A stretch of 64,000 nt of DNA from Bacillota bacterium (lineage in GTDB: Bacteria > Bacillota > DSM-12270 > Thermacetogeniales > Thermacetogeniaceae), in the NCBI GenBank assembly GCA_029907475.1, contig JARYLU010000001.1, positions 62,001 to 126,000 of the forward strand, read 5' to 3'. Positions 45,383-62,660 of this stretch are shown here, piece by piece; position 1 is the stretch's first letter; the number at the start of each line of letters is the position of its first letter. Under the pieces are notes generated by a model, which saw nothing but the letters and a program-made list of their open reading frames with translations, did not search any database and was not told the origin of the DNA. The translations under genes were made by a program, and so were the position numbers.

Positions 45383-45393
45383 CTCTGCAAGCC

Positions 45394-45422
45394 TTGACTT
45401 TAAGGAGAAAAATTAATAAAAT
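45394..45422 (+). promoter_or_regulatory. Sigma-A promoter for tRNA-Pro
   Basis: TTGACT (45394-45399) and TAAAAT (45417-45422) with a 17-base spacer; the -10 box ends 15 bases before the tRNA. Confidence 0.78.
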
Positions 45423-45437
45423 TAGGTAAGGACTAAA

Positions 45438-45514
45438 CAGGGTGTAGCTCAGCTTGGTAGAGCGCTAGCTTGGGGTGCTAGAGGCCGCGGGTTCAAATCC
45501 CGCCACTCTGACCA
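45438..45514 (+). tRNA. tRNA-Pro (anticodon GGG)
   Basis: A full cloverleaf of 77 bases with encoded CCA. The acceptor CAGGGTG pairs with CACTCTG (one GT pair), discriminator A. The D arm is GCTC...GAGC. The anticodon stem CTAGC/GCTAG encloses the loop TTGGGGT, so the anticodon is GGG. The T arm is GCGGG-TTCAAAT-CCCGC. C1-G72 with A73 is the proline pattern. It is single, with its own promoter and terminator. Confidence 0.95.
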
Positions 45515-45523
45515 TTGCAAATG

Positions 45524-45550
45524 AAAACGGGGAGGAGCCCCCGTTTTTTT
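45524..45550 (+). terminator. Intrinsic terminator after tRNA-Pro
   Basis: AAAACGGGG pairs with CCCCGTTTT around six bases and continues into a T run. Confidence 0.88.
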
Positions 45551-45591
45551 ATTTGTTTAGGTATTTTTTTAATTTATTTTTTGGGGTGGTT

Positions 45592-46632
45592 ATGATTTAC
45601 AAAGTACTGCATGTAGTTCGGCCGGTCCAGGGAGGAATAAAAAAGCACCTCCTCGTTCTTCTCCAGGGTTTTAATAACAAGAAGTATCACTGCTTTCTAG
45701 CTGCCCCTCCCGATCATGATTTAGTCAGTTCACTGGGACCCTTTGCTCGGAAAATTTTTTCAGTTCCAATTGCTGAGGGTTGGTATCCTGCTCGAGACTG
45801 GCAGGTTGTGAGAATTCTTTGTGATATCATTAATAAAGAAAAGTTCGATCTTGTTCATACCCATGGTATCAGGGCCGGGATTTTAGGTCAGATGGCTGCG
45901 CTTTTAGCAGGACATCGTGCTGTTGTTGCGACAATTCATAATTCTCAAAATCCAAGGATACCATTTTTTACTTTTTTCCGGCTCTTGCAAGCTTTGCTGT
46001 ACAGGGTTTCCGTAAGTCACGTGATTGCTGTATCAGAGGCTCTCAAGGGAGAAATTCAAAAGTATGAGTGGATGCCAGCCGAAAGAATTACGGTAATTTA
46101 TAATGGAATCGATTATCGCGTTTTCAAAGGGTATGAAGCGCCACGAACCTTACCACCTTCCTTCGGGTTGTCTCGTGACTTACCTGTTATTGGTACCGCC
46201 GCTCGTCTTGAACCAAGAAAAGGGATTAAATACCTGATCGAAGCAATTCCTTTTGTTGACAAGTGGTACGGACCGGCTTATTTTATTATTGTGGGAGACG
46301 GACCAGAGCGGGAAAGCCTGGAAGGGCTTGTAAAAAAAATGAACCTTTCGGAAAGGGTTATTTTTACCGGATATCGTTCTGATATTCCACCCTTGCTATC
46401 TCATTTTGATCTGGTGGTCATCCCTTCGATTCAGGAGGGGCTTTCGATTTTCTGTCTCGAAGCTTTAGCGAGTGGCCGTGCGGTAATTGCCACTTCTGTA
46501 GGGGGTCTCCCGGAAATTATCCGGAATGGGAGGACAGGGGTACTGGTTCCTCCGGCAGATCCGGTAGCGCTGGCGCAGGCAATTGGAGAGCTGCTGAAAA
46601 ACAGGGAACTTGCTGTATATTTAGGCCGGTAG
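45592..46632 (+). CDS. Glycosyltransferase family 4 protein, ended early by an in-frame TAG
   Basis: Transfers a sugar from a nucleotide sugar, probably in the envelope; substrate unknown. Seen: N-terminal KVLHVVRPVQGGIKKHLLVL and LVHTHGIRAGILGQMAALLA. The GT-B donor domain has VIGTAARLEPRKGIKYLIEA, FIIVGDGPERESLEGLV, and the EX7E-type PSIQEGLSIFCLEALASGRA. The frame ends at TAG 46630-46632 after ...AVYLGR. The same frame goes on to TAA 46729-46731 and encodes GKELVTREFSHTQMIEKTEQ and VYKKILAEGLSP, the normal end of a GT4 enzyme. The product is therefore about 31 residues short, or the codon is read through. ATG 45592 with GGGGTGG before it; an upstream extension would run into the tRNA. Confidence 0.85.
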   Translation: MIYKVLHVVRPVQGGIKKHLLVLLQGFNNKKYHCFLAAPPDHDLVSSLGPFARKIFSVPIAEGWYPARDWQVVRILCDIINKEKFDLVHTHGIRAGILGQMAALLAGHRAVVATIHNSQNPRIPFFTFFRLLQALLYRVSVSHVIAVSEALKGEIQKYEWMPAERITVIYNGIDYRVFKGYEAPRTLPPSFGLSRDLPVIGTAARLEPRKGIKYLIEAIPFVDKWYGPAYFIIVGDGPERESLEGLVKKMNLSERVIFTGYRSDIPPLLSHFDLVVIPSIQEGLSIFCLEALASGRAVIATSVGGLPEIIRNGRTGVLVPPADPVALAQAIGELLKNRELAVYLGR

Positions 46633-46745
46633 GGAAGGGAACTGGTGACGCGGGAATTTTCGCATACTCAAATGATCGAGAAAACAGAGCAGGTTTATAA
46701 AAAGATTTTGGCTGAGGGGTTAAGCCCTTAAAGGAGACGGAAGGA

Positions 46746-48959
46746 TTGTCATTAAGGAGAGGGAGAATTTTCAAGCAATTTTTCTTGATTTTTATTTTAT
46801 TAAACCTTTTTCATTTTTCAAAACCAGGAGTAATTTGGGCTCAAGAACAGAGTCATTCCCGCCAGATAATCTTTCTTATTTGTAACTATCTGGAATTATA
46901 TGATTTAAATTCCCCCGATCTACCTCAATGCCGTACCTTTTTTGAAGAAGGCGGAGTGGCCCTTCTTAATACCAATACAGCCGGTTTACGGACCCCTTCT
47001 CATGTAGCGGCTACAATTAGCGCAGGCAATGTGGCCTTTGGGACACCCCAAGAAACCCTTGTCTTTGGCGGCAATGAAACCTACCAGCGGCAGGACCCTC
47101 TTTCGCTTTTCCGGGCACGTACAGGCTTTACTCCAGACCCGAAAAATCTCGTTGTGATTGATTTACCATTGATTGTCCGGGCAAACGAAACAGGCCAGGT
47201 TAAGGTATTCCCGGGAGCACTCGGGGATGCTCTACGCCAGAAAGGGCTGCGAACGGGGGTTCTGGGAAACGCTGATTTACCTGGTACTCCTCAGCGTTCT
47301 ATGGCTGTTATTGCGATGGATTCGCGCGGAATTATTGATGCCGGAAACACTTCTACTGAACTGCTGCGCTCCCATCAAGAGGGGTTGCTTGGATTTCGTA
47401 CCGACTATCAAGCATTAAAAACAAATTTCCTTTCGTTGCAAGAGGAAACCGATTTCCTTGTTATTGATTTGGGAGATCTTGTTCGTCTCGAGCAAAACAA
47501 AGATTATCTAAACAATGAGGTTTACTTGCGGGAAAGAAAACTCATCTTACAGGAGTTTGATCAATTTTTAGGATGGCTGTTAAAAAATACTGATCTCCGG
47601 CACAGTCAAGTAATCGTTGCCTCCTTAGTGCCGACCCCAGGTGCTTTAAGTGCCAAGAGGCTGTTTACTTTCATCGGTGTTTTGGGTGAGGAGACTAGCC
47701 CTGGTTTGCTTCTTTCTCCAACCACGCGCAGAGCGGGGATCGTTACTTTGTATGATATTGCGCCAAGTATTCTTAAATATTTAGGAGCACCCGGATTTAA
47801 CACTATGGGAGGGCGCCCCTGGACCGTTACACCTGCTGTTAATAACCTGGAGATCCTCAAGAATCTTGAAGCCAGAACGGTTTTCATTTCGAATCTTCGC
47901 CCGCCTTTAGTAAAAGGTTACGTCCTCCTCCACCTGATTGTCCTGGCCGGTATTCTTCTGTTCTTGTTGTTCGAGCCTCGTAAAAGCAAATATCTTTCTC
48001 CCTTTCTCCTGGCCCTAATTGCAGTCCCCTTTGTTTTGCTGCTTATGGGTTCATTCACCGCTTTCAGCACCTGGCTTTACATGATGTTATTCTTTAGTTT
48101 TGTTGCGATTCTTGTTCTAGGCAGTGTTTGGTTGGTACGAAATAAAGATCTAGATCCCCTTTTAGTTCTCTGTTTAGCAACCGTAGGGCTACTTTTAGGG
48201 GACACCCTTGCCGGAAGTATGCTTCAAAAAAACTCCGTTCTGGGTTACGACCCGATGGCAGGGGCACGCTTTTACGGAATTGGCAACGAATATATGGGTG
48301 TCCTTTTGGGCGCTACGTTAATGGGGGTCTCACTGTTTGTGCAACGGTTAAGGCGGATTTCCTGGGGGACGTTTCTTCTAGTAGGGATTATTATGCTGTT
48401 TATTGTCAGCTTAGTTGGCGCACCGCAGTGGGGAAGCAACTTTGGGGGAACGGTGGCTTTTTTAGTTGCTTTTAGTTATACTTTCTCCAGGTTTTTACAA
48501 ATTCCGATTCGCGGCAGAGAAGTGGTACTGATTGGAATTATAGTAATCGTTATTTGTTCCGGATTGTTTATTTTAGATTATTTCCGCCCTCCTGAACTTC
48601 GCTCCCATTTTGGGCAACTGATTTCTGCCCTCCGAACGACGGGCGGAACTGCTCTCTGGGAAGTGATAAATAGAAAATTAGCCATGAACTACCGGTTAAT
48701 CAAATATACCATTTGGACGCGAGTTTTAATCGGTACGCTGCTTGCCCTGGGGATCCTCTTTTACCGTCCCATAGGCATCTTCCGCCGGGTTTTGGAAAAG
48801 TACCCCGCCCTCGCGGCGGGACTGGAAGGGAGTCTGCTGGGCGCTTTAGTGGCTTTAGTTTTTAACGATTCAGGTATTGTTGCCGCTGCAACTGCGCTTA
48901 TTTTTCCTGCAGCGACGTTATTCTTTTTGGTTTTACGCGAGCAGGCATCCTCTTTTTAA
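46746..48959 (+). CDS. Large membrane protein with alkaline-phosphatase-like extracytoplasmic part
   Basis: Not assignable to a characterised protein. Seen: an N-terminal hydrophobic signal (FFLIFILLNLFHF...), then about 390 residues outside the membrane with features of the alkaline-phosphatase/phosphopentomutase superfamily: QIIFLICNYLELYDLNSPDL near the start, TPSHVAATISAGN, DFLVIDLGDLVRLE, VTLYDIAPSILKYLGAP. About ten C-terminal membrane helices follow, with the motif GARFYGIGNEYMGVLLGATL. Length is 737 residues. The metal ligands of true phosphatases are not all visible, so activity is doubtful. TTG 46746 follows AAAGGAG. It comes directly after the glycosyltransferase, suggesting cell-envelope polysaccharide work. 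Confidence 0.75.
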   Translation: MSLRRGRIFKQFFLIFILLNLFHFSKPGVIWAQEQSHSRQIIFLICNYLELYDLNSPDLPQCRTFFEEGGVALLNTNTAGLRTPSHVAATISAGNVAFGTPQETLVFGGNETYQRQDPLSLFRARTGFTPDPKNLVVIDLPLIVRANETGQVKVFPGALGDALRQKGLRTGVLGNADLPGTPQRSMAVIAMDSRGIIDAGNTSTELLRSHQEGLLGFRTDYQALKTNFLSLQEETDFLVIDLGDLVRLEQNKDYLNNEVYLRERKLILQEFDQFLGWLLKNTDLRHSQVIVASLVPTPGALSAKRLFTFIGVLGEETSPGLLLSPTTRRAGIVTLYDIAPSILKYLGAPGFNTMGGRPWTVTPAVNNLEILKNLEARTVFISNLRPPLVKGYVLLHLIVLAGILLFLLFEPRKSKYLSPFLLALIAVPFVLLLMGSFTAFSTWLYMMLFFSFVAILVLGSVWLVRNKDLDPLLVLCLATVGLLLGDTLAGSMLQKNSVLGYDPMAGARFYGIGNEYMGVLLGATLMGVSLFVQRLRRISWGTFLLVGIIMLFIVSLVGAPQWGSNFGGTVAFLVAFSYTFSRFLQIPIRGREVVLIGIIVIVICSGLFILDYFRPPELRSHFGQLISALRTTGGTALWEVINRKLAMNYRLIKYTIWTRVLIGTLLALGILFYRPIGIFRRVLEKYPALAAGLEGSLLGALVALVFNDSGIVAAATALIFPAATLFFLVLREQASSF

Positions 48960-48979
48960 ACATGAGGGGGAGGGATAGG

Positions 48980-49783
48980 ATGCGGTTTATACGCTGCTCT
49001 TATCAGCAAAAAAAGATCTGGGGACTGGTTGAGGGAAATTTTATTAGAATGATTAAGGGTAGCCCTTTTAAGGGGGGCTGGGTGCCCACGGAAGAGACGA
49101 TTCCATTAGCCGGGGCCAGCTTACTTCCCCCCTGTAACCCCAGTAAGATCGTTTGCGTTGCATTAAATTATCGGGATCACGCCCGGGAACTCGGAATGGC
49201 ATTACCTGACGAGCCCCTTCTTTTTTTAAAACCACCTTCTTCGGTAACCGGTTCCGGCCAGAAAATAGTGTATCCTCGCTGCAGCCGTCAAATTGATTAC
49301 GAGGGAGAGCTTGCGGTAGTCATCAAAGAAAAAACCAGGTATGTCGCGGAAACTGAAGCAAAATCAAAAATTCTCGGGTATACCTGCGGTAATGATGTCA
49401 CGGCCAGGGATCTCCAAAAAAAGGATGGCCAATGGACGAGGGCCAAATCCTTTGATACTTTTTGTCCGCTGGGCCCCTTTCTTGCTGTTGATTTAAATCC
49501 TGACTGCCTCGGGATAAAAGTCACGGTAAACGGTAAAATTCGCCAGGATTCGTCAACTCGGGAAATGATTTTTCCTGTAACACAGCTGGTGAGCTACATT
49601 TCGTTTGTAATGACTCTTTACCCGGGGGATGTGATTATGACAGGGACCCCTTTTGGCGTTGGTCCCCTGGAGGTGGGTGATTATGTTAGTGTTGAAATTG
49701 AGGGAATCGGTAGCTTGACCAATGAAGTTGTCCCTGAGGGGTGCCGTTTCGGCCGGCAAACCCTGCAAAATCAAGGCTTCTAG
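48980..49783 (+). CDS. Fumarylacetoacetate hydrolase family protein
   Basis: Family members hydrolyse or decarboxylate acylpyruvates and related oxo-acids. Seen: the conserved core VCVALNYRDHARELGMALPD, the metal-site YEGELAVVIKEK, GYTCGNDVTARDLQKKDGQW, AKSFDTFCPLGPFL and VIMTGTPFGVGPLEVGDYV. Length is 267 residues from ATG 48980, which has GGGGAGGG six bases upstream; ATG 48962 lies before that site. Substrate unknown; it could act as oxaloacetate decarboxylase or tautomerase like other prokaryotic members. Confidence 0.9.
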   Translation: MRFIRCSYQQKKIWGLVEGNFIRMIKGSPFKGGWVPTEETIPLAGASLLPPCNPSKIVCVALNYRDHARELGMALPDEPLLFLKPPSSVTGSGQKIVYPRCSRQIDYEGELAVVIKEKTRYVAETEAKSKILGYTCGNDVTARDLQKKDGQWTRAKSFDTFCPLGPFLAVDLNPDCLGIKVTVNGKIRQDSSTREMIFPVTQLVSYISFVMTLYPGDVIMTGTPFGVGPLEVGDYVSVEIEGIGSLTNEVVPEGCRFGRQTLQNQGF

Positions 49784-49830
49784 TTCACTCAAAGACCCAA
49801 AAGCGGTAGCGACCGTTCGTAAAAATTTTG

Positions 49831-49858
49831 TTGACAAAACTTAAAGAAGTGCTAAAAT
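49831..49858 (+). promoter_or_regulatory. Sigma-A promoter for speD
   Basis: TTGACA (49831-49836) and TAAAAT (49853-49858) with a 16-base spacer, in AT-rich surroundings. Transcription would give a leader of about 100 bases. Confidence 0.8.
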
Positions 49859-49863
49859 TTAAT

Positions 49864-49940
49864 AGGATTGGAATTGGGCGCCGGAGAAATGGAATTGGCT
49901 CCAATTTCTTTCCTATTTTAGCATCAAATTCATGCTAAAA
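49864..49940 (+). promoter_or_regulatory. Structured speD leader with competing hairpins
   Basis: AATTGG occurs twice (49872-49877 and 49893-49898), but its complement CCAATT once (49901-49906). A long hairpin (49864-49914, helped by AGGA/TCCT) and a short one therefore exclude each other. A second hairpin, TTTTAGCAT/ATGCTAAAA (49916-49940), ends about ten bases before the AGGAGG of speD. It matches no riboswitch I can name. Regulatory meaning is inferred. Confidence 0.5.
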
Positions 49941-49968
49941 AAGATTTTAAAGGAGGTTGAGACTATTA

Positions 49969-50355
49969 ATGACAAATCTGAACTCTTTGGGGCGCCACAT
50001 TTTAGCTGAAATTTATGGTTGCACATTCGAAATCTTAAATGATCTTGAAAAAATCCAGCAGTTAATGGTAGATGCTGCACTTGCAGCAGGGGCCGAGATT
50101 AGAGAATGTGTCTTCCATAAATTCAGCCCTCAAGGGGTAAGCGGTGTAGTGGTAATTTCCGAGTCCCATCTGGCAATCCATACCTGGCCTGAGTTGGGTT
50201 ATGCGGCAGTGGACGTATTCACATGCGGAGAAAAAGTCGATCCGTGGAATGCATGTAGATATCTTGTCGAAAAGTTTCAGGCTGAGCACATGACTGCTAC
50301 GGAAATCAGACGCGGTATTATGGATACAAGCCAGAGGGCGGCGGTAAATCTTTAG
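49969..50355 (+). CDS. speD: S-adenosylmethionine decarboxylase proenzyme
   Basis: Pyruvoyl enzyme that makes decarboxylated SAM for spermidine. Seen: the short class Ib form of about 128 residues. [13 protein letters not shown] leads, and the self-cleavage site [15 protein letters not shown] has its catalytic serine at about residue 66, followed by the acid/cysteine region [18 protein letters not shown] 49969 is used; AGGAGG is slightly far (12 bases), and TTG 49957 is an alternative. No speE follows. Ends at a strong terminator. Confidence 0.94.
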
Positions 50356-50403
50356 GAGGGATATTTATTTTAGACCGCCCAGAAAAACAAAAAGGTTAGC
50401 AAC

Positions 50404-50442
50404 TAAGCCTTACAAGCGGTATTGTAAGGCTTATTTGTTTTT
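50404..50442 (+). terminator. Intrinsic terminator after speD
   Basis: TAAGCCTTACAA pairs perfectly with TTGTAAGGCTTA around six bases, followed by TTTGTTTTT. Confidence 0.9.
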
Positions 50443-50541
50443 GGAGGAAAATAAAATTTTCTTTTACGAAGGAGGAATTATTCAGAAAAGAGAGAATAGA
50501 GATTAAAGGATATTTTTACGTTTTTTTAAGAGGGGGTCGCG

Positions 50542-51111
50542 ATGAGCGAATTTAATCTTTCGCAGGTCTTGGAAACGAACCGGTCTTTTGTGGACGAGGT
50601 CATCGCAGAAAGTGGCCAGGATATTCGACAATGTTATCAATGTGCCAAGTGTTCCGGTGGATGCCCCGGCACTTTTGCGATGGATTACCTTCCCAACCAA
50701 ATCATGCGGATGCTCATGCTAGGGATGAAGGAAGAGGTTCTTAAATCACAGACAATCTGGGTTTGCATGGCCTGTAACACCTGTACAACCCGGTGTATCA
50801 GAGATATTGACGTCGCCCGGGTAATGGATACTCTGCGCCAAGAAGCCGTTAAGCATGGTTACACAGAAAATGGAAGACTCGTACTTATTTTTAATGACGT
50901 TTTTTTGGGTACAGTTCGAAGCTACGGTCGTCTCTTTGAAGCGGGACTTTTGATGATGAACAATTTAAAAACAGGGAGTTTGTTTAAGGATGCCCAGTTT
51001 GGCCTTCCGATGATGCTCAAGGGCAAGGCTAAGCCATTCCCTCACCGGATAAAAGGGCGCAGGGAAATTAAGAAAATTTTTGATGAGACCAAGCGGAGGG
51101 AGGGAAAGTAA
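50542..51111 (+). CDS. hdrC: Heterodisulfide reductase subunit C-like iron-sulfur protein
   Basis: Electron-transfer subunit carrying two [4Fe-4S] clusters. Seen: CYQCAKCSGGCPGTF near residue 31 and CMACNTCTTRCIRDI near residue 72, the HdrC pattern, in a 189-residue protein with basic C-terminus. Known: HdrC passes electrons between HdrA and HdrB. In non-methanogens the pair works with other flavoproteins or membrane oxidoreductases. GTG-rich leader with AGAGGGGGTCGCG before ATG 50542. Contiguous with hdrB. Confidence 0.92.
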   Translation: MSEFNLSQVLETNRSFVDEVIAESGQDIRQCYQCAKCSGGCPGTFAMDYLPNQIMRMLMLGMKEEVLKSQTIWVCMACNTCTTRCIRDIDVARVMDTLRQEAVKHGYTENGRLVLIFNDVFLGTVRSYGRLFEAGLLMMNNLKTGSLFKDAQFGLPMMLKGKAKPFPHRIKGRREIKKIFDETKRREGK

Positions 51112-51987
51112 ATGGCAAAATATGCATTATATCCCGGCTGTTCCTTAGAAACCGGAGGAATCGAGTATGGGATGTCCAGCCATGCGGTTGCCGAAACTCT
51201 CGGAATTGAGTTTTACGAAGTTCCGGATTGGAATTGTTGCGGTGCATCTTCCGCTCATATGACAGATCATCTTTTATCCCTCGCTCTTCCAGCTCGTGTT
51301 TTTGCCCTGGCAGAAACCTTACCTGTAAATGAAATGGTTGCTCCCTGCGCGGCCTGTCACCAACGGTTTGCCGCCGTAGAGCATGAGCTCCAAGATGAGG
51401 ACTTGCGGCGAAAAGTTAATTCTTTACTGGAGCGTCCTTATACAGGCAAAGTTAAATTAAAAAGCTATCTGGATGTATTTGCAAACTCCGCGACCTTAGA
51501 CAAAATTCAGAAAAAGGTTGAGAGAAGCCTCAAAGGGTTGAAAGTTGCTTGTTATTACGGTTGCTTGTTTGTAAAACCACCAAAAGTCGTAAATTTCGTT
51601 GACGACCCTGAAAATCCTCAAGCGATGGATAACATCATGCGTGCCCTGGGGGCAGAACCTTTGCCATGGCCTTATAAAACCGAATGTTGCGGCGCTTCTT
51701 TAGGAATGACCAAGGAGGATGCCTGTACAAAGTTATGTAATGATATTCTCAGGATCGCGAAAGATGCCGGTGCTGACTGTATTGTGGCGGCGTGTCCTCT
51801 TTGCCAGCAAAATCTAGATATGCGGCAAATTAGCGTCGAGAAGAAATACGGCACTCAATACAGAATGCCAATCCCCTTTTTCACCCAGCTGATTGGATTG
51901 GCTTTCGGTCTTGATCCAAAGGTGCTTGGCTTCAAGAAGTTATTTGTAGATCCGGTAATGGTTCTGCGGAAAGTCGGTGTGGCCTAA
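51112..51987 (+). CDS. hdrB: Heterodisulfide reductase subunit B-like protein
   Basis: Disulfide- or thiol-active subunit with two CCG domains. Seen: YALYPGCSLETGGIEYGMSS at the start and the two CCG motifs, DWNCCGASSAHMT and TECCGASLGMTKED, with matching CxxC partners in APCAACHQRF and AACPLCQQNL. These bind the non-cubane clusters in methanogen HdrB. Length is 291 residues. Starts at the base after the hdrC stop. No hdrA is adjacent, so the electron source is unknown. Confidence 0.93.
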   Translation: MAKYALYPGCSLETGGIEYGMSSHAVAETLGIEFYEVPDWNCCGASSAHMTDHLLSLALPARVFALAETLPVNEMVAPCAACHQRFAAVEHELQDEDLRRKVNSLLERPYTGKVKLKSYLDVFANSATLDKIQKKVERSLKGLKVACYYGCLFVKPPKVVNFVDDPENPQAMDNIMRALGAEPLPWPYKTECCGASLGMTKEDACTKLCNDILRIAKDAGADCIVAACPLCQQNLDMRQISVEKKYGTQYRMPIPFFTQLIGLAFGLDPKVLGFKKLFVDPVMVLRKVGVA

Positions 51988-52067
51988 AAACCACCGGGTT
52001 GAGAGCAGAAAAAAAGAAAATATTATTTTAAGGGAAAACACTCTAGATAAATGATAAATAAATAGAG

Positions 52068-52100
52068 GGGGTTCTTGTATTGAAAAAGAACCCCTTATTT
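52068..52100 (+). terminator. Possible terminator between hdrB and the prenyl-synthase-like gene
   Basis: GGGGTTCTT pairs perfectly with AAGAACCCC around nine bases. The T tract (TTATTT) is weak. Confidence 0.45.
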
Positions 52101-52119
52101 ATGGGGAGGACTTTTTTCG

Positions 52120-52881
52120 ATGTCCCGGGAGTTCCCGGCCTTCTTTCAAGCGGTTCAGAAAGAACTGGAATTGGTTTTTGAAAAATTAGAAGTTGTACTG
52201 CAACCTCAAGCAAAATTAGTGCTTCAGAAATTTTTACCCCACTTTGATTTAGACAGGGTAATTCCGCCGGGGCTTGTTTTGTTAGGAGCACACCTTTTTG
52301 CAAAAACCGGGACTGCAATCTTGCCTGCCGTTTTTGTGGAACTTATTTATCTTGCGACTACTCTTCATAATCTACCTTGGAAAAGAGGGAAAGAAAGTCC
52401 GACTTTAATTCTTGGAGGAGATTATCTTTTTGGTCATCTGTTTTTTTTGCTCTGCGAGCATAATTGTCTTTTTTTATTAGATAGACTTGCCCGGCTCATC
52501 AAGGAAATGAGTGAGGGGTCTACTCTTTTGGAAACAGGCTGGCAAAAGGGGCGCGAATTGAACAGGCAGAGTATTTTAGAGGGGCTCAAAAAACAGTACG
52601 GCAGTTTTTTTGGAGAGAGTTGCGCACTGGGATGCCTTTTTGCAGGAGGAGACGAAGAAAAACAATTTTTAATTTCCAAGTTTGGCGTTGAGATCGGGAT
52701 CGCCTATGGTGCTAAAAGAATCGGTTTAGAGTCTTCTTTATCCCTCTTTCACCTCAACCGCGCTCTTTGTCTGTTAGCCTCCTTCCCGGCTCCCAGCGGT
52801 AAAAAAGAACTTGAAAAAGCAGCGCGAGAAATTGCTTTACTCCCCCCGGTAAAAATAACATCATACCCTGCTTTAATCTAA
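52120..52881 (+). CDS. Degenerate polyprenyl-synthase-like protein
   Basis: Seen: 253 residues that align, segment by segment, with the polyprenyl synthase encoded 2.3 kb downstream. FVELIYLATTLHNLPWKRGK stands where that enzyme has AIELIHMATLVHDDIIDGAS, and EIGIAYGAKRIGLESS where it has YIGMAFQISDDILDL. Both Asp-rich catalytic motifs are lost. LILGGDYLFGHLFFLL keeps the structural helix. Inferred: a non-catalytic subunit, comparable in role to the small HepS subunit of heptaprenyl diphosphate synthase, or a chain-length regulator. ATG 52120 with GGGGAGGA upstream. It ends at a terminator before ubiD. Confidence 0.72.
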   Translation: MSREFPAFFQAVQKELELVFEKLEVVLQPQAKLVLQKFLPHFDLDRVIPPGLVLLGAHLFAKTGTAILPAVFVELIYLATTLHNLPWKRGKESPTLILGGDYLFGHLFFLLCEHNCLFLLDRLARLIKEMSEGSTLLETGWQKGRELNRQSILEGLKKQYGSFFGESCALGCLFAGGDEEKQFLISKFGVEIGIAYGAKRIGLESSLSLFHLNRALCLLASFPAPSGKKELEKAAREIALLPPVKITSYPALI

Positions 52882-52894
52882 AACAAAATCACAG

Positions 52895-52923
52895 CGGTGC
52901 TTCCAGGCACCGTCTTTTGTTTT
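52895..52923 (+). terminator. Intrinsic terminator before ubiD
   Basis: CGGTGC pairs with GCACCG around TTCCAG and is followed by TCTTTTGTTTT. An upstream AAAACAAAA can extend the stem. Confidence 0.8.
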
Positions 52924-52934
52924 GGTCATCCTTA

Positions 52935-52963
52935 TTGTTTTCGCGAAAAATGTACGTTAAACT
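52935..52963 (+). promoter_or_regulatory. Weak promoter candidate before ubiD
   Basis: TTGTTT and TAAACT separated by 17 bases, just after the terminator; both boxes are imperfect. Confidence 0.3.
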
Positions 52964-53014
52964 AGGATAAGCACAAATAATCACTAACTTACAGGAATTT
53001 TGGGAGGGATAGAG

Positions 53015-54466
53015 TTGGCTTATCGTGATCTCCGGGAATTTATAGGTGTCCTCGAAAAACGAGGTTTATTGCATAGGGTTAAAGTTGAGGTCGATCCAAT
53101 TTTAGAAATTACTGAAATCACAGACCGGATTAGCAAGCAAGGCGGACCTGCTCTGCTTTTTGAAAAGGTGAAGGGTTCTCATTTTCCAGTGTTAATAAAT
53201 GCCTTCGGAAGTACAGAGCGAATGGAGTTGGCACTCGGGGTCGGCGATCTTGAAGAAATTGCTGTACGGCTCCGTAAACTGCTTCAGTTTCAGGATTTAT
53301 CGGGCTCCTTGCTGGATAAAATTAAACTTCTGCCTCGCCTTGCAGAAATGAATGCCTGGACCCCAAAATTAGTTAAAAATGCACCCTGCCAGGAGGTTGT
53401 TCACATTGATGATGCCTCCTTAGAGAGTTTACCAATTTTAAAATGCTGGCCGGGGGACGGAGGTCGCTACATTACCCTTCCGCTTGTTTTTACAAAGGAT
53501 CCCGAAACCGGCCAGCGCAACCTGGGGATGTACCGCCTCCAGGTTTTTGATACTCGGACAACGGGAATGCACTGGCACATTCATAAAAACGGCGCCGAGA
53601 ATTATAAAAAACATCAGGTTATTGGTAAGCGGATGGATGTTGCGGTTGCATTAGGCGGAGATCCGGCGACAATTTATGCCGCAACTACTCCCCTTCCCCG
53701 CGGCTTTGATGAGATTCTTTTTGCCGGGTTTCTCCGGCAACAGGCGGTGGAAATGGTTAAATGCATCACCGTTGATTGTGAGGTGCCCGCCCAGGCAGAA
53801 ATCGTTTTAGAAGGATACGTGGATTTGGAGGAAAAACGCCTGGAGGGGCCTTTCGGAGATCATACAGGATATTACTCCCTCCCTGACTGGTATCCGGTTT
53901 TTCATATTACTTGCATCACTCATCGCCGGGATGCCATTTATCCCGCGACCGTTGTAGGGAAGCCTCCGATGGAAGACTGTTTCCTTGCAAAGGCAACAGA
54001 GAGAATTTTTCTCCCAGTCATTAAGTTTTATCTTCCCGAAGTGGTTGATTTAAACCTTCCCCTTGAGGGAGTTTTTCATAGCTGCGCGGTTGTCGCAATA
54101 GAGAAGAGCTACCCCGGGCACGCGAAAAAAGTAATGTGCGCCCTGTGGGGTCTGGGACAGATGATGTTTACAAAAATGATTATTGTCGTAGATGCTCACG
54201 TAAATGTTCATGATATGGCAGAAGTATGGTGGAGGGTTTACAACAATGTCGATCCGAAGCGCGATTTCCTTTTTATCGAGGGGCCCGTCGAAGTGCTAGA
54301 CCATGCCTCTCCCTTTCCTGCTTACGGCTCGAAAGTAGGCATAGATGCCACAAAGAAGGGTCCAGGTGAAGGACATTTCAGGGAATGGCCCGATGAAATC
54401 GAGATGTATCAAGAAATCAAAGAGCGTGTTGCTGCGAGGTGGCAGGAGTACGGTTTTAGAACCTAG
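53015..54466 (+). CDS. ubiD: UbiD-family decarboxylase
   Basis: Prenylated-FMN-dependent decarboxylase of aromatic or unsaturated acids. Here it probably removes the ring carboxyl in quinone synthesis. Seen: YRDLREFIGVLEKRGLLHRV at the start, TTGMHWHIHKNGAENY, ALGGDPATIYAATTPLPRG, EGPFGDHTGYYSLPDWYPV with the E-x-D/R network region, and the end GPGEGHFREWPDEI. About 483 residues. TTG 53015 has GGGAGGG six bases upstream. ubiX, which makes its cofactor, follows after 15 bases. Confidence 0.93.
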   Translation: MAYRDLREFIGVLEKRGLLHRVKVEVDPILEITEITDRISKQGGPALLFEKVKGSHFPVLINAFGSTERMELALGVGDLEEIAVRLRKLLQFQDLSGSLLDKIKLLPRLAEMNAWTPKLVKNAPCQEVVHIDDASLESLPILKCWPGDGGRYITLPLVFTKDPETGQRNLGMYRLQVFDTRTTGMHWHIHKNGAENYKKHQVIGKRMDVAVALGGDPATIYAATTPLPRGFDEILFAGFLRQQAVEMVKCITVDCEVPAQAEIVLEGYVDLEEKRLEGPFGDHTGYYSLPDWYPVFHITCITHRRDAIYPATVVGKPPMEDCFLAKATERIFLPVIKFYLPEVVDLNLPLEGVFHSCAVVAIEKSYPGHAKKVMCALWGLGQMMFTKMIIVVDAHVNVHDMAEVWWRVYNNVDPKRDFLFIEGPVEVLDHASPFPAYGSKVGIDATKKGPGEGHFREWPDEIEMYQEIKERVAARWQEYGFRT

Positions 54467-54481
54467 GGAGGGATATCCAGG

Positions 54482-55078
54482 ATGAACACTTGGGTTTTTG
54501 CAATTACCGGCGCCACAGGTGCGATTTATGCCCAGAAACTTTTAGCAGCTTTAAAAGCGAAACAAGCCAGAATTTGCTTAACCATTACAGGGCCAGGCAT
54601 GCGTGTTGTGAAAGATGAGCTGGGCTGGTCCTTGGCGGGAACTCCTCAGGAAATTGAACGAAAATTCAGGGATTATTTAGGATACGGTTCTGAGGATCAA
54701 AACCTTTCTTATTTTGACTGGCAGGATATCGGGTGCTGTCTTGCGAGCGGCTCTTTCCCCACAAAAGGGATGCTGGTGGTTCCCTGCAGTATGGCGACAC
54801 TTGCGGGGATCGCGGGGGGGATGTCCCGTAACCTCGTGGAACGGGCCGCGGATGTGACTCTCAAAGAAAGGCGCCCCCTGGTTCTCGTACCGCGTGAAAC
54901 TCCACTTAATCCCATTCAAATTAAAAATATGCTTACCCTGGCAGAAATCGGGGTTCACATTGTTCCGCCGGTGCCTGCGTTTTATTTTGGGCCCCGGAGT
55001 ATTGACGATCTGGTAGAATTTTTTGTGGCGCGCCTCTTGAGTTTAATAGGGCTCGAAAATTGTGGTGACCGTTGTTAA
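54482..55078 (+). CDS. ubiX: Flavin prenyltransferase UbiX
   Basis: Attaches dimethylallyl phosphate to FMN to form the prenyl-FMN needed by UbiD. Seen: VFAITGATGAIYAQKLLAAL with the FMN-binding Ser/Thr region, GSFPTKGMLVVPCSMATLAG, NLVERAADVTLKERRPLVLV and PRETPLNPIQIKNMLTLAE. Length is 198 residues. ATG 54482 follows AGGGAGGG. Adjacent to ubiD. Confidence 0.95.
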   Translation: MNTWVFAITGATGAIYAQKLLAALKAKQARICLTITGPGMRVVKDELGWSLAGTPQEIERKFRDYLGYGSEDQNLSYFDWQDIGCCLASGSFPTKGMLVVPCSMATLAGIAGGMSRNLVERAADVTLKERRPLVLVPRETPLNPIQIKNMLTLAEIGVHIVPPVPAFYFGPRSIDDLVEFFVARLLSLIGLENCGDRC

Positions 55079-55188
55079 AAAACTAGGAAGATTATTGATG
55101 TCGTACTAAAAAGGAATTCCTGAGGGAGTTCACGAATTATTTATTAAATCAAAATAGGGTGAAGTATTGATGTAAAAAGGTGGGGTTC

Positions 55189-56157
55189 ATGAATTACCGG
55201 GGTATTTTAAGGGAAATTGCCAGCGATTTAGCCTATGTCGAAACCGAATTAGAAAAGCATGCCCTTACCTCAAACACTCTTCTAAGGGATACTTCTGACC
55301 ATTTGCTCAAAGCTGGTGGAAAAAGATTGCGCCCCGCCCTCGTGCTCCTGGCAGGGAAGTTTTTTAATTATTTACTCGAGCGCCTGGGGCCGCTTGCTGT
55401 TGCAATCGAGTTGATTCATATGGCAACACTTGTCCATGATGATATTATTGACGGCGCCTCTACGCGCCGGGGAATTCCTACAGTACGGGCACAGTGGGGG
55501 GATCCCGTTGCTTTATATACAGGAAGTTATCTCCTTGCCCAGGCCCTGACGCTTGTTGCCGAGCACGGAAACGCGCAGGTTGCCCGGGTTCTTGCTGATG
55601 TAAGCCTTAAAATGTGCGAAGGAGAAATTGAACAAATTGAAACAATTGGAAAACTGGATCAAGGGATGCGTGCTTACCTGCGCCGAATTAAACTGAAAAC
55701 GGCCCTACTGATTTCTTCATGTTGTTTAATTGGGGCCTTGGCCAGTGATGCACCACCTGCAGTTGCCAGATCTCTAAAAAAGTATGGCTATTATATAGGA
55801 ATGGCTTTTCAAATCAGCGATGATATTTTAGATCTCGTGGGGAGCGAAAAACAGTGTGGAAAACCGGTTGGAAGCGATCTACGTCAAGGAATTATTACCT
55901 TACCTGTAATTTATGCCCTAAAAGATCGAACGTGGGGATCTCGTTTAGCACAAATTATTTTAACGGAGAATAAAGAGGAATCGGAATGGGAAGAAATCTT
56001 TTGGTTAGTGAAGGTTTCGGGCGCGTTAAACTCTTCGCAAAATTTGTGTAACCTTTATCTTGCCAAGGCAAAACAGCAACTAATGGTGCTACCGGATCTT
56101 CCACCCCGGCGAATATTAGCTGCGATGGCGGATTTTGTCGGAAGTCGAGATTTTTAA
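55189..56157 (+). CDS. hepT: Polyprenyl diphosphate synthase
   Basis: Builds the isoprenoid side chain of a quinone (probably menaquinone) from IPP and an allylic primer. Seen: LLKAGGKRLRPALVLLAG, the first Asp-rich motif in HMATLVHDDIIDGASTRRG, the second in GMAFQISDDILDLVGSEKQC, and the KPVGSDLRQGIITLPVIYAL segment. Length is 322 residues. ATG 55189 with AAGGTGG upstream. The chain length cannot be read safely by eye. It likely works with the degenerate paralog at 52.1 kb or alone. Confidence 0.93.
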   Translation: MNYRGILREIASDLAYVETELEKHALTSNTLLRDTSDHLLKAGGKRLRPALVLLAGKFFNYLLERLGPLAVAIELIHMATLVHDDIIDGASTRRGIPTVRAQWGDPVALYTGSYLLAQALTLVAEHGNAQVARVLADVSLKMCEGEIEQIETIGKLDQGMRAYLRRIKLKTALLISSCCLIGALASDAPPAVARSLKKYGYYIGMAFQISDDILDLVGSEKQCGKPVGSDLRQGIITLPVIYALKDRTWGSRLAQIILTENKEESEWEEIFWLVKVSGALNSSQNLCNLYLAKAKQQLMVLPDLPPRRILAAMADFVGSRDF

Positions 56158-56182
56158 ATCCACTGCTAGAAGGAGGGACAGC

Positions 56183-56959
56183 ATGCCCGAGAGCGTATCT
56201 CAAGAGAAAGATCAGGAGGCAATGCCTTTACTGAAACACCTTGAAGAGCTCCGGAAAGTTATTATTGTTTCCCTGGTCGCCATCGGTGTAGCCAGCATTG
56301 GAGCCCTCTTTTTTGTAGATCAAATTTTAGCGATTCTGACTAAGCCTGTTCGTGATTTAGGTCACGCGATTGTATTTACCGCAATGACAGAGGGGATCTT
56401 TACAAAATTTAAGGTCGCTTTGCTGGCCGGGGCCGTCTTCGCCTCTCCCGTTGTGCTCTGGCAATTTTGGCGCTTTTTTGTCCCCGCGCTTTACCCCCAT
56501 GAAAAAAAGTATGTGCTAAGACTTGTTCCTGTTTCTATTTTACTTTTCGCGGGGGGAGTAGTTTTTGCTTATTTTGCGGTTTTTCCGTTGGCGGTTTTCT
56601 TTTTGATCAAGCTTGCCGGGGGATTTGAGCCGATGCTGACGATTAGTAGATATTTTTCTTTCACCCTCACTTTTTTAATTCCCTTTGGGCTAATTTTCGA
56701 GTTCCCCTTAATTATCTATTTTCTCAGTCTGATCGGGGTTGTTACTCCCGAATGGCTGGTACGAAATCGAAAATATTCAATTGTTTCTACGTTCATCCTT
56801 GCGGCGATTTTAACACCTGGTCCGGATCCTCTATCTCAGTCGATTATGGCCGCACCGATGCTTATTTTCTATGAAATCGGTATTCTCGTGGCTAAGGTGG
56901 TGGCCAGAAAAAAGCGTGCCAGGTTTAACGAACTCGCGAGCGAGGAAGGTACTATTTAG
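56183..56959 (+). CDS. tatC: Sec-independent protein translocase TatC
   Basis: Receptor component of the twin-arginine export pathway. Seen: PLLKHLEELRKVIIVSLVAI at the start, six predicted membrane helices, ALYPHEKKYVLRLVPVSIL, FGLIFEFPLIIYFLSL and the end AILTPGPDPLSQSIMAAPM. Length is 258 residues. ATG 56183 follows AAGGAGGG. No tatA lies beside it. The gene 250 bases downstream encodes a protein with a twin-arginine signal, a likely client. Confidence 0.95.
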   Translation: MPESVSQEKDQEAMPLLKHLEELRKVIIVSLVAIGVASIGALFFVDQILAILTKPVRDLGHAIVFTAMTEGIFTKFKVALLAGAVFASPVVLWQFWRFFVPALYPHEKKYVLRLVPVSILLFAGGVVFAYFAVFPLAVFFLIKLAGGFEPMLTISRYFSFTLTFLIPFGLIFEFPLIIYFLSLIGVVTPEWLVRNRKYSIVSTFILAAILTPGPDPLSQSIMAAPMLIFYEIGILVAKVVARKKRARFNELASEEGTI

Positions 56960-56976
56960 TGTGGAACTGCGGATCG

Positions 56977-56999
56977 TCCCCTTCCAGAGGGGATTTTTT
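56977..56999 (+). terminator. Intrinsic terminator after tatC
   Basis: TCCCCT pairs with AGGGGA around TCCAG, followed by six T. The remaining 200 bases before the formate dehydrogenase hold a 12-codon frame (57130-57168) with a good ribosome site, which I do not call a gene. Confidence 0.8.
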
Positions 57000-57207
57000 A
57001 ATTTAGAGATACAGCAGGATTTTTCAAGGAGACGGAGAATATAGAACAGGGACTGTATACTCTTCTTAAATATGGTTTTCTTAAGTTTTTAAAGCTTTTT
57101 GTAACCAAATGAAAAAATGAATGGAGGTGATGAAAAAGAGTAAAGATTTTGCAAACTTTTCTGAGTAAAGCAAGTTAAAAACAACTAAAAAAGGAGTGAG
57201 GGATTAG

Positions 57208-60200
57208 GTGAGATTAACAAGGCGCGAATTTCTTAAGATCTCTGGCGCCGCAGTTGCTACCTTACCGGCCCTCGGTTTTGACCTCACGCCTGTATTCGCA
57301 CAGGTTGGAGAGTTCCGGATCAAGAATATCCAACCAGTTCCTACAATTTGTCCTTATTGCGGGTGCGGGTGCGGTTTAGTAGTTTATGCCGCCGATGGAA
57401 AGGTAATCAATACCGAGGGAGATCCGGATCACCCCATTAATCAGGGATCTACATGCAGTAAAGGCGCCGCGCTCTACCAGATTTATGATAATCCGCGGCG
57501 GATGCAAAAACCCCTTTACCGCGCGCCAGGTAGTGACCATTGGGAAGAAAAAGAGTGGGATTGGGTTCTAGAAAAAATTACGGAAAAGGTAAAAGAAACC
57601 CGGGATGCCAGTTTTATTGCGAAGGAGAAAGTAAAAACAAAAGACCCGGAAACCGGAACCGAAAAAGAGGTAGAAGTTACTGTTAACAGGACGGAAGCCA
57701 TAGCCAGCCTGGGCGGGGCGGCTCTGGATAATGAAGAAGCCTACATTCTCTCAAAATTGATGCGAGGTCTCGGGGTCGTATATCTCGAGCATCAAGCACG
57801 GATATGACACTCTCCAACGGTTGCCGGTCTGGCACCATCTTTTGGCAGAGGTGTAATGACAAACCACTGGAACGACTTGCAGAATACCGACTGTGCGTTG
57901 ATCATCGGAAGCAACGCGGCGGAAAATCATCCCATGTCCTTTAAATGGCTGACAGTAGCACGGGAGAAGCGGGGGGCCAAAATTATCAGCGTAGATCCGC
58001 GCTTTACCCGGACTTCCGCGAAAGCGGATATTTATGCACCACTCCGTTCGGGTACAGATATTCCTTTTATCGGGGGCTTGATTAATTACGTCATTCAAAA
58101 CAAACTTTATCATCATGATTATGTAGTGAATTATACAAACGCCGCTTTTATCATGGATGACGGCTTTGATTTTAAAGACGGGCTCTTCAGCGGCTATGAC
58201 CCCGAAAAGCGTAAGTATGACCAGAAAACCTGGAAATACAAAACCGATGCCGAGGGTAAACCTTTAAAGGACCCCACACTCCAGGACCCGCGCTGCGTCT
58301 TTCAGCTTCTCAAGAAGCATTATGAGCGGTACGATGTAGATACTGTTTGCGAGATCACGGGAACCCCGAGGGATCTTTATTTAAAGGTGGCGGAAGCTTT
58401 CGGGGCAACAGGGGTGCCGGATAAATCCGGAGTGATCATGTATGCGATGGGGACAACCCAGCATACGGTGGGCTCCCAAAACGTCCGGATCTATGCAATC
58501 CTCCAGTTGCTGCTCGGTAATGTCGGGGTACCGGGAGGCGGTATCGCGGCGATGCGGGGTGAATCCAACGTCCAGGGCTCCACGGATATGGGGCTGCTCA
58601 GCCATCTCGTCACTGCTTACAACCCGGCGCCTACGAACGATCCGGCATACGCAACCCTCGAAGGCTATATCAATAAGGAGACCCCGAAGGCGGGTTTCTG
58701 GAGCAACAGGCCCAAGTTCCTCATCAGTATGCTGAAGTCGTGGTACGGAGATGCTGCAACCAAGGAAAACGAATTCGCTTACCAGTACCTTCCCAAACGG
58801 GATGCCAACCGGAACTACACTCATATCGGCCTCTTTGAAGCTATGTATGACGGCATTATAAAAGGACTTTTTGTTTTTGGCTCAAATCCCGTTGTCGGAG
58901 GCCCCAACACCAATAAAGAGGCCAAGGCCCTGGAAAACTTAGACTGGATGGTAGCCGTTGACCTCTGGGAGACCGAAACATCTGCCTTCTGGTCCCGAGA
59001 GGCCGGCGTTGATCCCGCAAAAATCAAGACAGAGGTTTTCTTCCTCCCTGCCTGTTCTTCCTTTGAGAAGCAGGGTACGGTTACAAACAGCGGGCGCTGG
59101 GTGCAGTTCCGCTGGAAGGCTGTTGAACCTGTCGGTGAATCCTGGAGCGATCTGGAAATTATTTATGAATTAGGCAAAGAAATTAAGCAACTGTATGCCG
59201 GGAGCACGAAACCGGAAGATAAACCAATCGTTGATCTCACCTGGAACTACAGCGAGGAGGAAGAAAAACTTTTAGATGAAGTCCAGCGGGAGATCAACGG
59301 CTATGATCTCACTACCGGGAAGCTCATGGGGAAATTCGGGGACCTTAAAGATGACGGGACTACCTCCAGCGGCGTTTGGGTTCTTTGTGGTATGTATACG
59401 GAGGAGGAAAACAAAACTCAGAAACGGGACAACAAAGATACTACTGGGATTGGTCAGTATCCAAACTGGGCCTTTGCCTGGCCAATAAACAGGCGGATTG
59501 TTTACAACAGGTGTTCTGCTGATCCGGAAGGCAGGCCCTGGTCCGAGGATAAAAAGGTGATCTGGTGGGATCCCACCCAAGGGGATCCGGCGAAGGGCGA
59601 GAAAGGAAAATGGGTGGGGCTTGATGTGCCTGATTTCAAGCCGACCGTGGCACCTTCGGATCCGGGCGGAAAAGACCCCTTCATCATGAAGGACGACGGT
59701 GTGGGCGGCCTTTTTGCCAAGATGGCCGACGGACCCTTCCCCGAGCACTACGAACCCTGGGAGAGTCCGGTACCGAATCTCCTCTCTTCAGTTCAGTTGA
59801 ACCCGGCTGTGAAGATCTGGAATACACCTATGAACGAGCAGGGTACCCCGGATAAATATCCGATTGTCGGGACAACATATCGGGTTTCCGAGCACTGGCA
59901 GGCGGGAGCGATGACCCGGAACTTACCGTGGCTCGCAGAGTTGATGCCTAATGTATTTGTGGAAATGAGTGAAGAACTGGCCCGGGAGCGGGGAATCGCT
60001 AATGGAGATGTTGTTACCGTAGAAACGGCCCGGGGCAAGGTATACGCGGTCGCTTGTGTTACCAGGCGGTTTAAGCCTTTTTACATCAACGGTAAAACGG
60101 TTCACCAAATCGGAATTTTGTGGCATTACGGTTATAAAGGAGTAGCTACCGGTGACCCGGCTAACCGCTTAACACCCCATATCGGCGATGCAAATACAAC

Positions 60201-60252
60201 AATACCAGAGTATAAAGCCTGGCTTTGCAATGTGTACAAGGGGGTGAGCTAA
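57208..60252 (+). CDS. fdnG: Formate dehydrogenase catalytic (alpha) subunit, selenocysteine-containing
   Basis: Oxidises formate to CO2 at a Mo/W-bis-MGD centre outside the membrane. Seen: a twin-arginine signal RLTRREFLKISGAAVATLPA, a [4Fe-4S] site with CPYCGCGCGLVV then STCSKGAALYQ, and an in-frame TGA at 57805-57807 (codon 200) flanked by YLEHQARI and HSPTVAGLAPSFGRG. That is the exact context of selenocysteine in FdnG/FdhF. The frame continues unbroken to 60252 with MTNHWNDLQNTD, ISVDPRFTRTSAKADIYAPL, and the C-terminal cofactor domain ending near GILWHYGYKGVATGDPANR. About 1,014 residues. GTG 57208 with AAGGAG upstream. Reading the TGA as a stop would split one gene in two. Confidence 0.95.
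57819..57836 (+). promoter_or_regulatory. SECIS element for selenocysteine insertion
   Basis: Starting 12 bases after the TGA: GG, a bulged T, TGCC, the loop GGTCT, GGCA, CC. The stem, bulged U and GGUCU loop match the E. coli fdhF SECIS that binds SelB. Confidence 0.88.
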
Positions 60253-60253
60253 A

Positions 60254-61703: not shown

Positions 61704-61722
61704 TGGTGTTTGTTAAAATTTA

Positions 61723-61755
61723 AAAAGAGGGGGTTGGGAAAATACCCCCTCTTTT
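61723..61755 (+). terminator. Hairpin between gamma subunit gene and fdhE
   Basis: AAAAGAGGGGG pairs perfectly with CCCCCTCTTTT around eleven bases. Only four T, within the stem, so it may terminate partially and lower fdhE expression. Confidence 0.6.
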
Positions 61756-61804
61756 ACTCTTGTCATTATAAATTGCGAAGTGATAAGTTAAGGAGGAGCA
61801 TGTC

Positions 61805-62617: not shown

Positions 62618-62660
62618 TAGTTTTACAACCGGGAGAGACTCCCGAGAGCGAGGCGCATTT

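What the first reader, a model, noticed from the sequence alone, without database searches (positions are those of the whole stretch)
52120..52881. Catalytically dead paralog of the polyprenyl synthase in the same cluster
Seen: segment-by-segment similarity to the active enzyme at 55189-56157, but both Asp-rich motifs are replaced (LHNLPWKRG and AKRIGLESS). Known: some medium-chain prenyl synthases need a non-catalytic partner (HepS/HexA). Those known partners are unrelated to, or very diverged from, the catalytic subunit. Inferred: this one arose by duplication and may set chain length.
Basis: partly seen in the sequence, partly recalled or inferred. Interest (0 to 1): 0.55.

Follow-up and report, generated by a model that had tools for sequence, protein, structure and literature searches.

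The report
HepS-like silent half of prenyl synthase
This gene encodes a protein shaped like a prenyl-chain-building enzyme but without its active site; it most likely works as the silent partner of the active enzyme encoded 2.3 kb away in making the menaquinone (vitamin K2) tail, and it looks like a less decayed cousin of the known partner protein HepS.

Summary
Window 52120-52881 (SSU, 253 aa) is a trans-prenyl synthase homologue (PF00348, 27.9 bits, cut-off 27; 25% identity over 161 aa to the active enzyme, LSU). Both Asp-rich motifs are gone, as are the GKR, RR, KT, Q and GK substrate residues, with a deletion after the second motif.

"Dead partner subunit" is well supported by comparison; "arose by duplication in this cluster" is not. 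SSU is present in 19 of 20 genomes of the order, mostly beside ubiD and LSU. It belongs to a wide Bacillota family that often sits where hepS sits (hepS-menG-hepT) and is fused to MenG in some genomes. Profile comparison links it to Bacillus HepS, and a tree puts all sampled SSU and HepS rows on one side of one branch. A clade of this order's SSUs with its own LSUs is rejected (p-AU 0.0006).

I read it as a HepS-type non-catalytic subunit that has decayed less than Bacillus HepS, pairing with the HepT-like LSU to make a C35 tail. Thermacetogenium phaeum, with the same cluster, is reported to contain MK-7. Contact and chain length are untested. P0001 itself misses the PF07307 (HepS) model, so I file it as a variant, not as a Pfam HepS member.

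The parts
52120..52881 (+). SSU: non-catalytic, HepS-type small-subunit homologue, 253 aa
   Evidence: model pLDDT 87.2; Z 25.9 to 3oyr_A
52369..52383 (+). SSU residues 84-88 at the first Asp-rich motif: NLPWK in place of DDIID
   Evidence: alignment
52396..52458 (+). SSU helix 93-113 (SPTLILGGDYLFGHLFFLLCE); best conserved helix over 68 SSUs and the one that shares most with HepS (within the 16 SSUs of the order alone helix 149-174 scores slightly higher)
52717..52731 (+). SSU residues 200-204 at the second Asp-rich motif: RIGLE in place of DDILD; deletion follows
   Evidence: alignment
52103..52111 (+). Shine-Dalgarno-like GGGGAGGAC
   Evidence: sequence
52058..52102 (+). hairpin just before the SSU ribosome site (-22.7 kcal/mol, z -2.8); role unknown
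52894..52913 (+). terminator-like hairpin after SSU (z -3.7 for 52880-52930); a similar one follows SSU in the same-genus genome (L035 5521-5538)
55189..56157 (+). LSU: catalytic HepT-like polyprenyl diphosphate synthase, 322 aa
   Evidence: TIGR02748 360.7 bits, below its cut-off 456.55
53000..54466 (+). UbiD-family menaquinone decarboxylase
   Evidence: TIGR03701 655.1 bits over cut-off 495.9
54482..55078 (+). UbiX-family flavin prenyltransferase
   Evidence: TIGR00421 187.4 bits over cut-off 108.9
49957..50355 (+). S-adenosylmethionine decarboxylase (SpeH), conserved neighbour
50542..51111 (+). HdrC-like iron-sulfur protein, conserved neighbour
51112..51987 (+). HdrB-like protein, conserved neighbour
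56183..56959 (+). TatC, conserved neighbour

Best explanation
52120-52881 encodes the non-catalytic (HepS/HexA-type) subunit of a heteromeric polyprenyl diphosphate synthase whose catalytic subunit is the HepT-like protein at 55189-56157. Shown here by computation: homology to catalytic synthases, loss of the substrate and metal residues, a full trans-prenyl-synthase fold in the model, conservation and selection, conserved position beside menaquinone genes and LSU, and profile and tree kinship with HepS. Inferred: SSU takes the place of the second subunit in the usual homodimer, supplies part of the wall of the elongation tunnel and so fixes the length, most likely C35 for MK-7. The family comes from an ancient gene duplication, not a local one, and keeps more of the ancestral fold and sequence than Bacillus HepS.
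For: Catalytic residues: at the aligned positions the 16 SSUs of the order hold none of GKR, the first Asp motif, RR, T171, Q208 or GK, against 35 of 35 LSUs that hold all of them; in the 52 other SSUs single residues survive. Model pLDDT 87.2, best Z 25.9 to a catalytic synthase and 23.7 to a mint GPPS chain whose length fits the non-catalytic small subunit. SSU in 19 of 20 genomes of the order. In 19 fetched stretches: UbiD 18, HdrB 18, SpeH 17, LSU 16. dN/dS 0.135. Elsewhere in the phylum 48 of 52 hand-picked SSU stretches hold at least one of MenG, UbiD, UbiA, MqnC or LSU; the next gene is MenG in 21 and fused MenG in 4 of 52, and MenG in 8 of 8 HepS loci. HepS profile against the order's SSUs: 94-95% probability, E 3e-8 to 1.5e-7; against other SSUs: 97.8%, E about 1e-12; against 8 unrelated neighbour families and 4 reversed profiles: at most 0.8%. 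Tree split of SSU plus HepS from LSU plus other synthases 100/96. The contig of G019 has exactly the 2,939,057 bp of T. phaeum, whose quinone is reported as MK-7 (passages).
Against: No interaction or product data. P0001 itself shows no PF07307 match in scans up to E 1 and E 10 (the filters drop most weak matches), and the confident HepS alignment covers only SSU residues 68-156. Weak PF07307 matches are not specific to SSU: of the 47 weaker rows, 19 lie on frames of 319 aa or more that are not SSU-MenG fusions and look catalytic, one of them over the cut-off; in T. phaeum the only match is on another synthase. HepS against LSU also gives 79%. A terminator-like hairpin separates SSU from ubiD, so co-transcription with LSU is not assured. 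The genome holds a second long-chain-type synthase (G000:C52) that could be the partner. No MenG reaches its cut-off in the own genome, and T. phaeum lacks recognisable head-group genes, so the menaquinone route here is incompletely understood. The helix 93-142 block is not significantly more conserved than others (29 of 253 rotations as high). Long branches are in the tree.
Confidence: 0.8

Rival explanations
1. SSU is a pseudoenzyme with another partner or duty: it pairs with the second long-chain synthase of the genome, or mainly tethers menaquinone-assembly enzymes such as MenG.
For: A second catalytic synthase of 346 aa lies on G000:C52. MenG is fused behind SSU in four inspected proteins. 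SSU may be transcribed alone.
Against: LSU shares the cluster in 16 of 19 stretches. No MenG was found in the 19 stretches of this order, and only 1 of 20 genomes has a MenG over the model cut-off.
Confidence: 0.13
2. One reading: a duplicate of the LSU that arose within this cluster.
For: Same cluster and same fold family.
Against: SSU-LSU clade of this order rejected, p-AU 0.0006; SSUs group with other SSUs and HepS, 100/96.
Confidence: 0.04
3. A decaying pseudogene.
For: Faster evolution than LSU: 36-71% against 60-82% identity to the window protein. Frame broken in the Syntrophaceticus schinkii assembly.
Against: dN/dS 0.135 between two species of the genus (dS 1.3, near saturation); full-length frames in 17 of the 19 genomes with a match, the other two being broken or cut by contig ends.
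Confidence: 0.03

Closest known systems
HepS, component I of Bacillus heptaprenyl diphosphate synthase (PF07307; PDB 9kp1 chain A)
   Same: Size, lost catalytic motifs, the GDY helix (10 of 21 consensus residues), position in a menaquinone-tail gene group with a HepT-type enzyme
   Different: P0001 misses PF07307 but passes PF00348; its C-terminal helix still aligns with that of catalytic synthases; UbiD, not MenG, is the next gene
HexA of Micrococcus luteus hexaprenyl diphosphate synthase
   Same: Non-catalytic small subunit proposed to set length through the cavity size (passages of the review PMC7839719)
   Different: Not compared directly; no HexA chain was among the rows shown
Dlp1/PDSS2, the D-less subunit of decaprenyl diphosphate synthase
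   Same: Asp-less synthase-type subunit, needed for activity (passages of PMC4049637)
   Different: Eukaryotic ubiquinone enzyme; heterotetramer; no direct comparison made
Plant geranyl diphosphate synthase small subunit (PDB 3oab, 3kra, 3qkc)
   Same: Fold of the P0001 model, Z 23.4-23.7; about 250 aa; lacks the Asp motif
   Different: Serves C10 synthesis; only 16-17% identity in the structural alignments

Membership tests
HepS (PF07307) | reaches the curated PF07307 score | tested here: not met
   P0001 has no PF07307 match listed at E up to 10; 15 of 17 A1 members match at E up to 10, best 5.7e-5; no match in the own genome at E 1; 0 of 20 genomes of the order over the cut-off
HepS (PF07307) | profile-level homology to HepS | tested here: met
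   95% probability, E 2.7e-8; HepS negative controls at most 0.8%
HepS (PF07307) | gene linked to a HepT-type catalytic subunit | tested here: met
   LSU in 16 of 19 stretches; TIGR02748 is its best NCBIfam model but below cut-off
HepS (PF07307) | hepS-menG adjacency | tested here: not met
   0 of 19 stretches in this order; 21 adjacent plus 4 fused of 52 in other SSUs; 8 of 8 HepS loci
HepS (PF07307) | forms an active complex with the catalytic subunit | not testable with these tools
   needs a bench assay or a complex prediction
Catalytic trans-polyprenyl diphosphate synthase (PF00348) | curated PF00348 score | tested here: met
   27.9 against 27 bits
Catalytic trans-polyprenyl diphosphate synthase (PF00348) | two Asp-rich motifs and the GKR, KT residues | tested here: not met
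Catalytic trans-polyprenyl diphosphate synthase (PF00348) | all-helical isoprenoid synthase fold | tested here: met
   model m27e0511dc128, Z 25.9, rmsd 2.5 over 234 residues to 3oyr_A
Plant GPPS small subunit | two CxxxC motifs (recalled) | tested here: not met
   one CxxxC (C168-C172) in P0001, present in 6 of the 17 rows of A1

The most novel reading that the evidence does not exclude
The SSU/HepS family may be a docking hub as well as a ruler: it would hold the elongating synthase next to the enzymes that finish menaquinone, so that the very oily tail is handed over. The natural SSU-MenG fusions would be the frozen form of that contact, and the clostridial SSUs the living intermediates between a catalytic synthase and HepS.
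Probability: 0.2. Interest if true: 0.65.

Novelty: new variant of a known kind. Interest (0 to 1): 0.42.

Why it matters
It supplies sequences that sit between catalytic prenyl synthases and the very diverged HepS. The order of residue loss in a pseudoenzyme subunit can be read from them, and chain-length control can be tested with a partner that still has a well-predicted synthase fold. It also suggests a function for a widespread family of Bacillota that the Pfam HepS model mostly leaves below its cut-off (of the 52 SSU genomes I looked at, 2 pass it; 16 of all 398 genomes do).

Tried and rejected
Local duplication was rejected by the AU test. Pseudogene was judged unlikely from dN/dS and intact frames. 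Stronger conservation of the helix 93-142 block as a sign of a dimer interface was not significant (29, 27 and 36 of 253 rotations as high in three row sets), so I do not use it. Two of my unrelated controls rang against SSU: HdrB (98.9% and 90.9%) and MenG (43.1% and 99.1%). The cause was rows in which SSU is part of the same frame: one HdrB-SSU frame that runs through an ambiguous base (L039), and SSU-MenG fusions. Without the 1 and 5 long rows both fall to at most 0.4%. A simple association with the futalosine pathway is uneven: PF02621 is strong (E at most 1e-40) in 37 of 52 chosen SSU genomes and in 60 of 331 others, but only in 6 of 15 genomes of the own family in that draw; the 331 may hold undetected SSUs and the genomes are not independent. 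Rfam at gathering thresholds gave one match in 45000-64000, a tRNA at 45438-45511. The 50 rows shown in each fold listing did not include chain 9kp1_A or a HexA chain; this is no evidence of difference. Among the titles and abstract starts listed in searches none named this family; the lists are capped and cover only open-licence PMC papers. Passages sought in PMC8578096, PMC12345219 and PMC13040438 gave nothing on the small subunit.

Rows dropped: from A1, the broken S. schinkii copy and the copy cut between two contigs of G017; from A2, one row with an internal stop and others without a full LSU; from the tree, 13 near-identical rows, three wrongly framed rows, then 30 more long or near rows for the 72-row tree. 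The 52 'other' SSUs were picked by hand (short or about 525-aa frames), accepted if they scored higher with the SSU than with the LSU profile; they are not exhaustive.

Full report
What is there. The ORF at 52120-52881 starts at an ATG behind GGGGAGGAC and encodes 253 residues. It is homologous to the polyprenyl diphosphate synthase at 55189-56157: 25% identity over 161 residues, E 5e-8; PF00348 27.9 bits, just over the cut-off of 27. The genome has four PF00348 matches: the LSU of this cluster, two further strong ones, and this one as the weakest.

What is lost and kept. In a joint alignment of 35 LSU rows, 16 SSUs of the order, 52 other SSUs and 8 HepS proteins, all 35 LSUs hold GKR, both Asp-rich motifs, RR, KT, Q208 and the GK..D..G..P residues. 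At these positions the 16 SSUs of the order hold none of GKR, the first Asp motif, RR, T171, Q208, the first two Asp of the second motif, or GK; K170 is present in 3 of 16 and the last Asp of the second motif in 2 of 16. In the 52 other SSUs single residues survive, for example K45 in 16, D88 in 21 and T171 in 15. A DDxxD or DDxxxxD string occurs anywhere in 1 of 16, 2 of 52, 0 of 8 and 35 of 35 rows of the order SSU, other SSU, HepS and LSU groups (all). The GDY helix is kept: its Gly is present in all 111 rows. In that helix the SSU consensus shares 10 of 21 residues with the HepS consensus and 5 of 21 with the LSU consensus. In the next helix an Asn before the Glu occurs in 13 of 16, 25 of 52 and 7 of 8 of the SSU, other SSU and HepS rows and in 0 of 35 LSUs; the window protein itself has Ser there, as 7 LSUs do.

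Fold. AlphaFold2 with 14 aligned sequences gives pLDDT 87.2, pTM 0.88, all helical. VIA-align gives Z 25.9, rmsd 2.5 over 234 residues to a Caulobacter polyprenyl synthase (3oyr_A), Z 23.7 to chain C of the mint heterotetrameric GPPS (3oab; its length fits the small subunit) and Z 22.5 to chain A of S. aureus heptaprenyl diphosphate synthase (5h9d). A shared fold does not show function, but here it says that the body of the synthase is kept although the active site is not.

Conservation. 19 of 20 genomes of the order match SSU; the one without is 76% complete. In 19 fetched stretches from 18 other genomes, some cut by contig ends, the neighbours are: HdrB 18, UbiD 18, SpeH 17, LSU 16, TatC 14, UbiX 12. 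The gene directly after SSU is UbiD in 17 of 19. Between the window and its same-genus relative dN/dS is 0.135 for SSU, 0.078 for LSU and 0.057 for UbiD. SSU changes faster than LSU: 36-71% against 60-82% identity to the window protein.

Wider family. I fetched 52 such loci. 48 of 52 stretches hold at least one of MenG, UbiD, UbiA, MqnC or LSU; the next gene is MenG in 21, and MenG is fused in 4. The fusion was checked in four proteins: residues from about 279 match demethylmenaquinone methyltransferase over the curated cut-off (264-268 bits against 235). The N-terminal part matches synthase models in L136 and L141; in L150 and L162 no synthase model is among the 25 listed, but the SSU profile scores 92 and 75 bits. 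[quoted passage not shown] The 52 SSUs match PF00348 in 45 cases and PF07307 in 19 at E up to 0.001; in two genomes (G240, G263) the SSU gene itself passes the PF07307 cut-off. So the family lies between the two Pfam models. A caution: PF07307 also rings weakly on frames that look catalytic (19 of the 47 weaker rows), so weak PF07307 hits alone prove little.

Kinship with HepS. hhalign: order SSUs against other SSUs E 2.5e-42; other SSUs against HepS 97.8%, E 7e-13; order SSUs against HepS 95.2%, E 2.7e-8, confined to SSU residues 68-156. HepS against eight unrelated neighbour families and four reversed profiles gave at most 0.8%. HepS against LSU directly gave 79%, weaker than against either SSU set. 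A profile of the order's SSUs finds HepS of 9kp1 (E 9e-5) and the HepS-family chain of 5h9d (E 9e-4) among solved structures, but catalytic synthases score better (best E 7e-14).

Tree. In a 72-row tree SSU and HepS together are one side of a branch with 100/96 support; LSUs are one group (99/97), order SSUs one group (100/99), HepS one group (100/99). Holding the order's SSUs together with its own LSUs lowers the log-likelihood by 43.7, p-AU 0.0006. Long branches are present, so the exact place of HepS inside or beside the SSUs is open.

Function. G019 is a single contig of 2,939,057 bp, the exact length given for Thermacetogenium phaeum (abstract and passage of PMC3551663). [quoted passage not shown] by order the SSU would be c15460 and the LSU c15430 (inference). 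That organism is reported to have MK-7 (passages). The product of the pair is therefore most likely heptaprenyl diphosphate. For known relatives the review PMC7839719 says that mint GPPS shows no activity without either subunit and that HexA may control length (passages), and PMC4049637 that Dps1 and Dlp1 are both needed (passages). I infer the same here: SSU replaces one half of the homodimer and lines the tunnel.

Against. No contact or product was tested. SSU is followed by a terminator-like hairpin with a counterpart in the same-genus genome and preceded by a stable hairpin, so it may be its own transcript. A second long-chain-type synthase stands on another contig beside a DUF2600 gene. 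No MenG is over its cut-off in the own genome, although MqnC is and a UbiA-family prenyltransferase is present. P0001 misses PF07307, so I do not call it a PF07307 member; I say it works like HepS and is kin to it.

Verdict. A real, conserved, catalytically dead synthase homologue; very likely a HepS-type subunit; ancient rather than local in origin; interesting mainly as a bridge between enzyme and pseudoenzyme and for its fusions with MenG.

Noticed in passing
L136 4370-5938, L141 6033-7604, L150 5903-7483, L162 5007-6578: SSU fused in one frame to a demethylmenaquinone methyltransferase (MenG) in four inspected proteins; one search lists ten genomes with SSU frames of 524-532 aa.
   Followed up: partly
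G019 (T. phaeum by exact length), whole genome: No PF02621 (MqnA/D) match at E 0.001, and no MqnC, MenD or MenG over cut-off, although MK-7 is reported and UbiD, UbiX, SSU and LSU are kept. How the head group is made is unexplained; PMC3551663 says all genes but one were found (passage). The own genome does have MqnC and a PF02621 gene on C11.
   Followed up: partly
L002 1378-2418 and 2419-3543 (G000:C52): A second long-chain-type prenyl synthase convergent with a DUF2600 gene (PF10776, 431 bits); DUF2600 includes YtpB, a C35 terpene cyclase (recalled).
   Followed up: partly
57208-60252: Formate dehydrogenase alpha gene with one in-frame TGA at 57805-57807, probably selenocysteine; the T. phaeum paper says the same of fdhA1/fdhA2.
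   Followed up: yes
52058-52102: Stable hairpin (z -2.8) directly before the SSU ribosome site; no Rfam match at gathering score; could be a terminator of hdrB or a control element.
   Followed up: partly
L206 and L051 (Syntrophaceticus schinkii Sp3): The SSU reading frame is split in two overlapping frames in this assembly; sequencing error or real loss, not decided.
   Followed up: no
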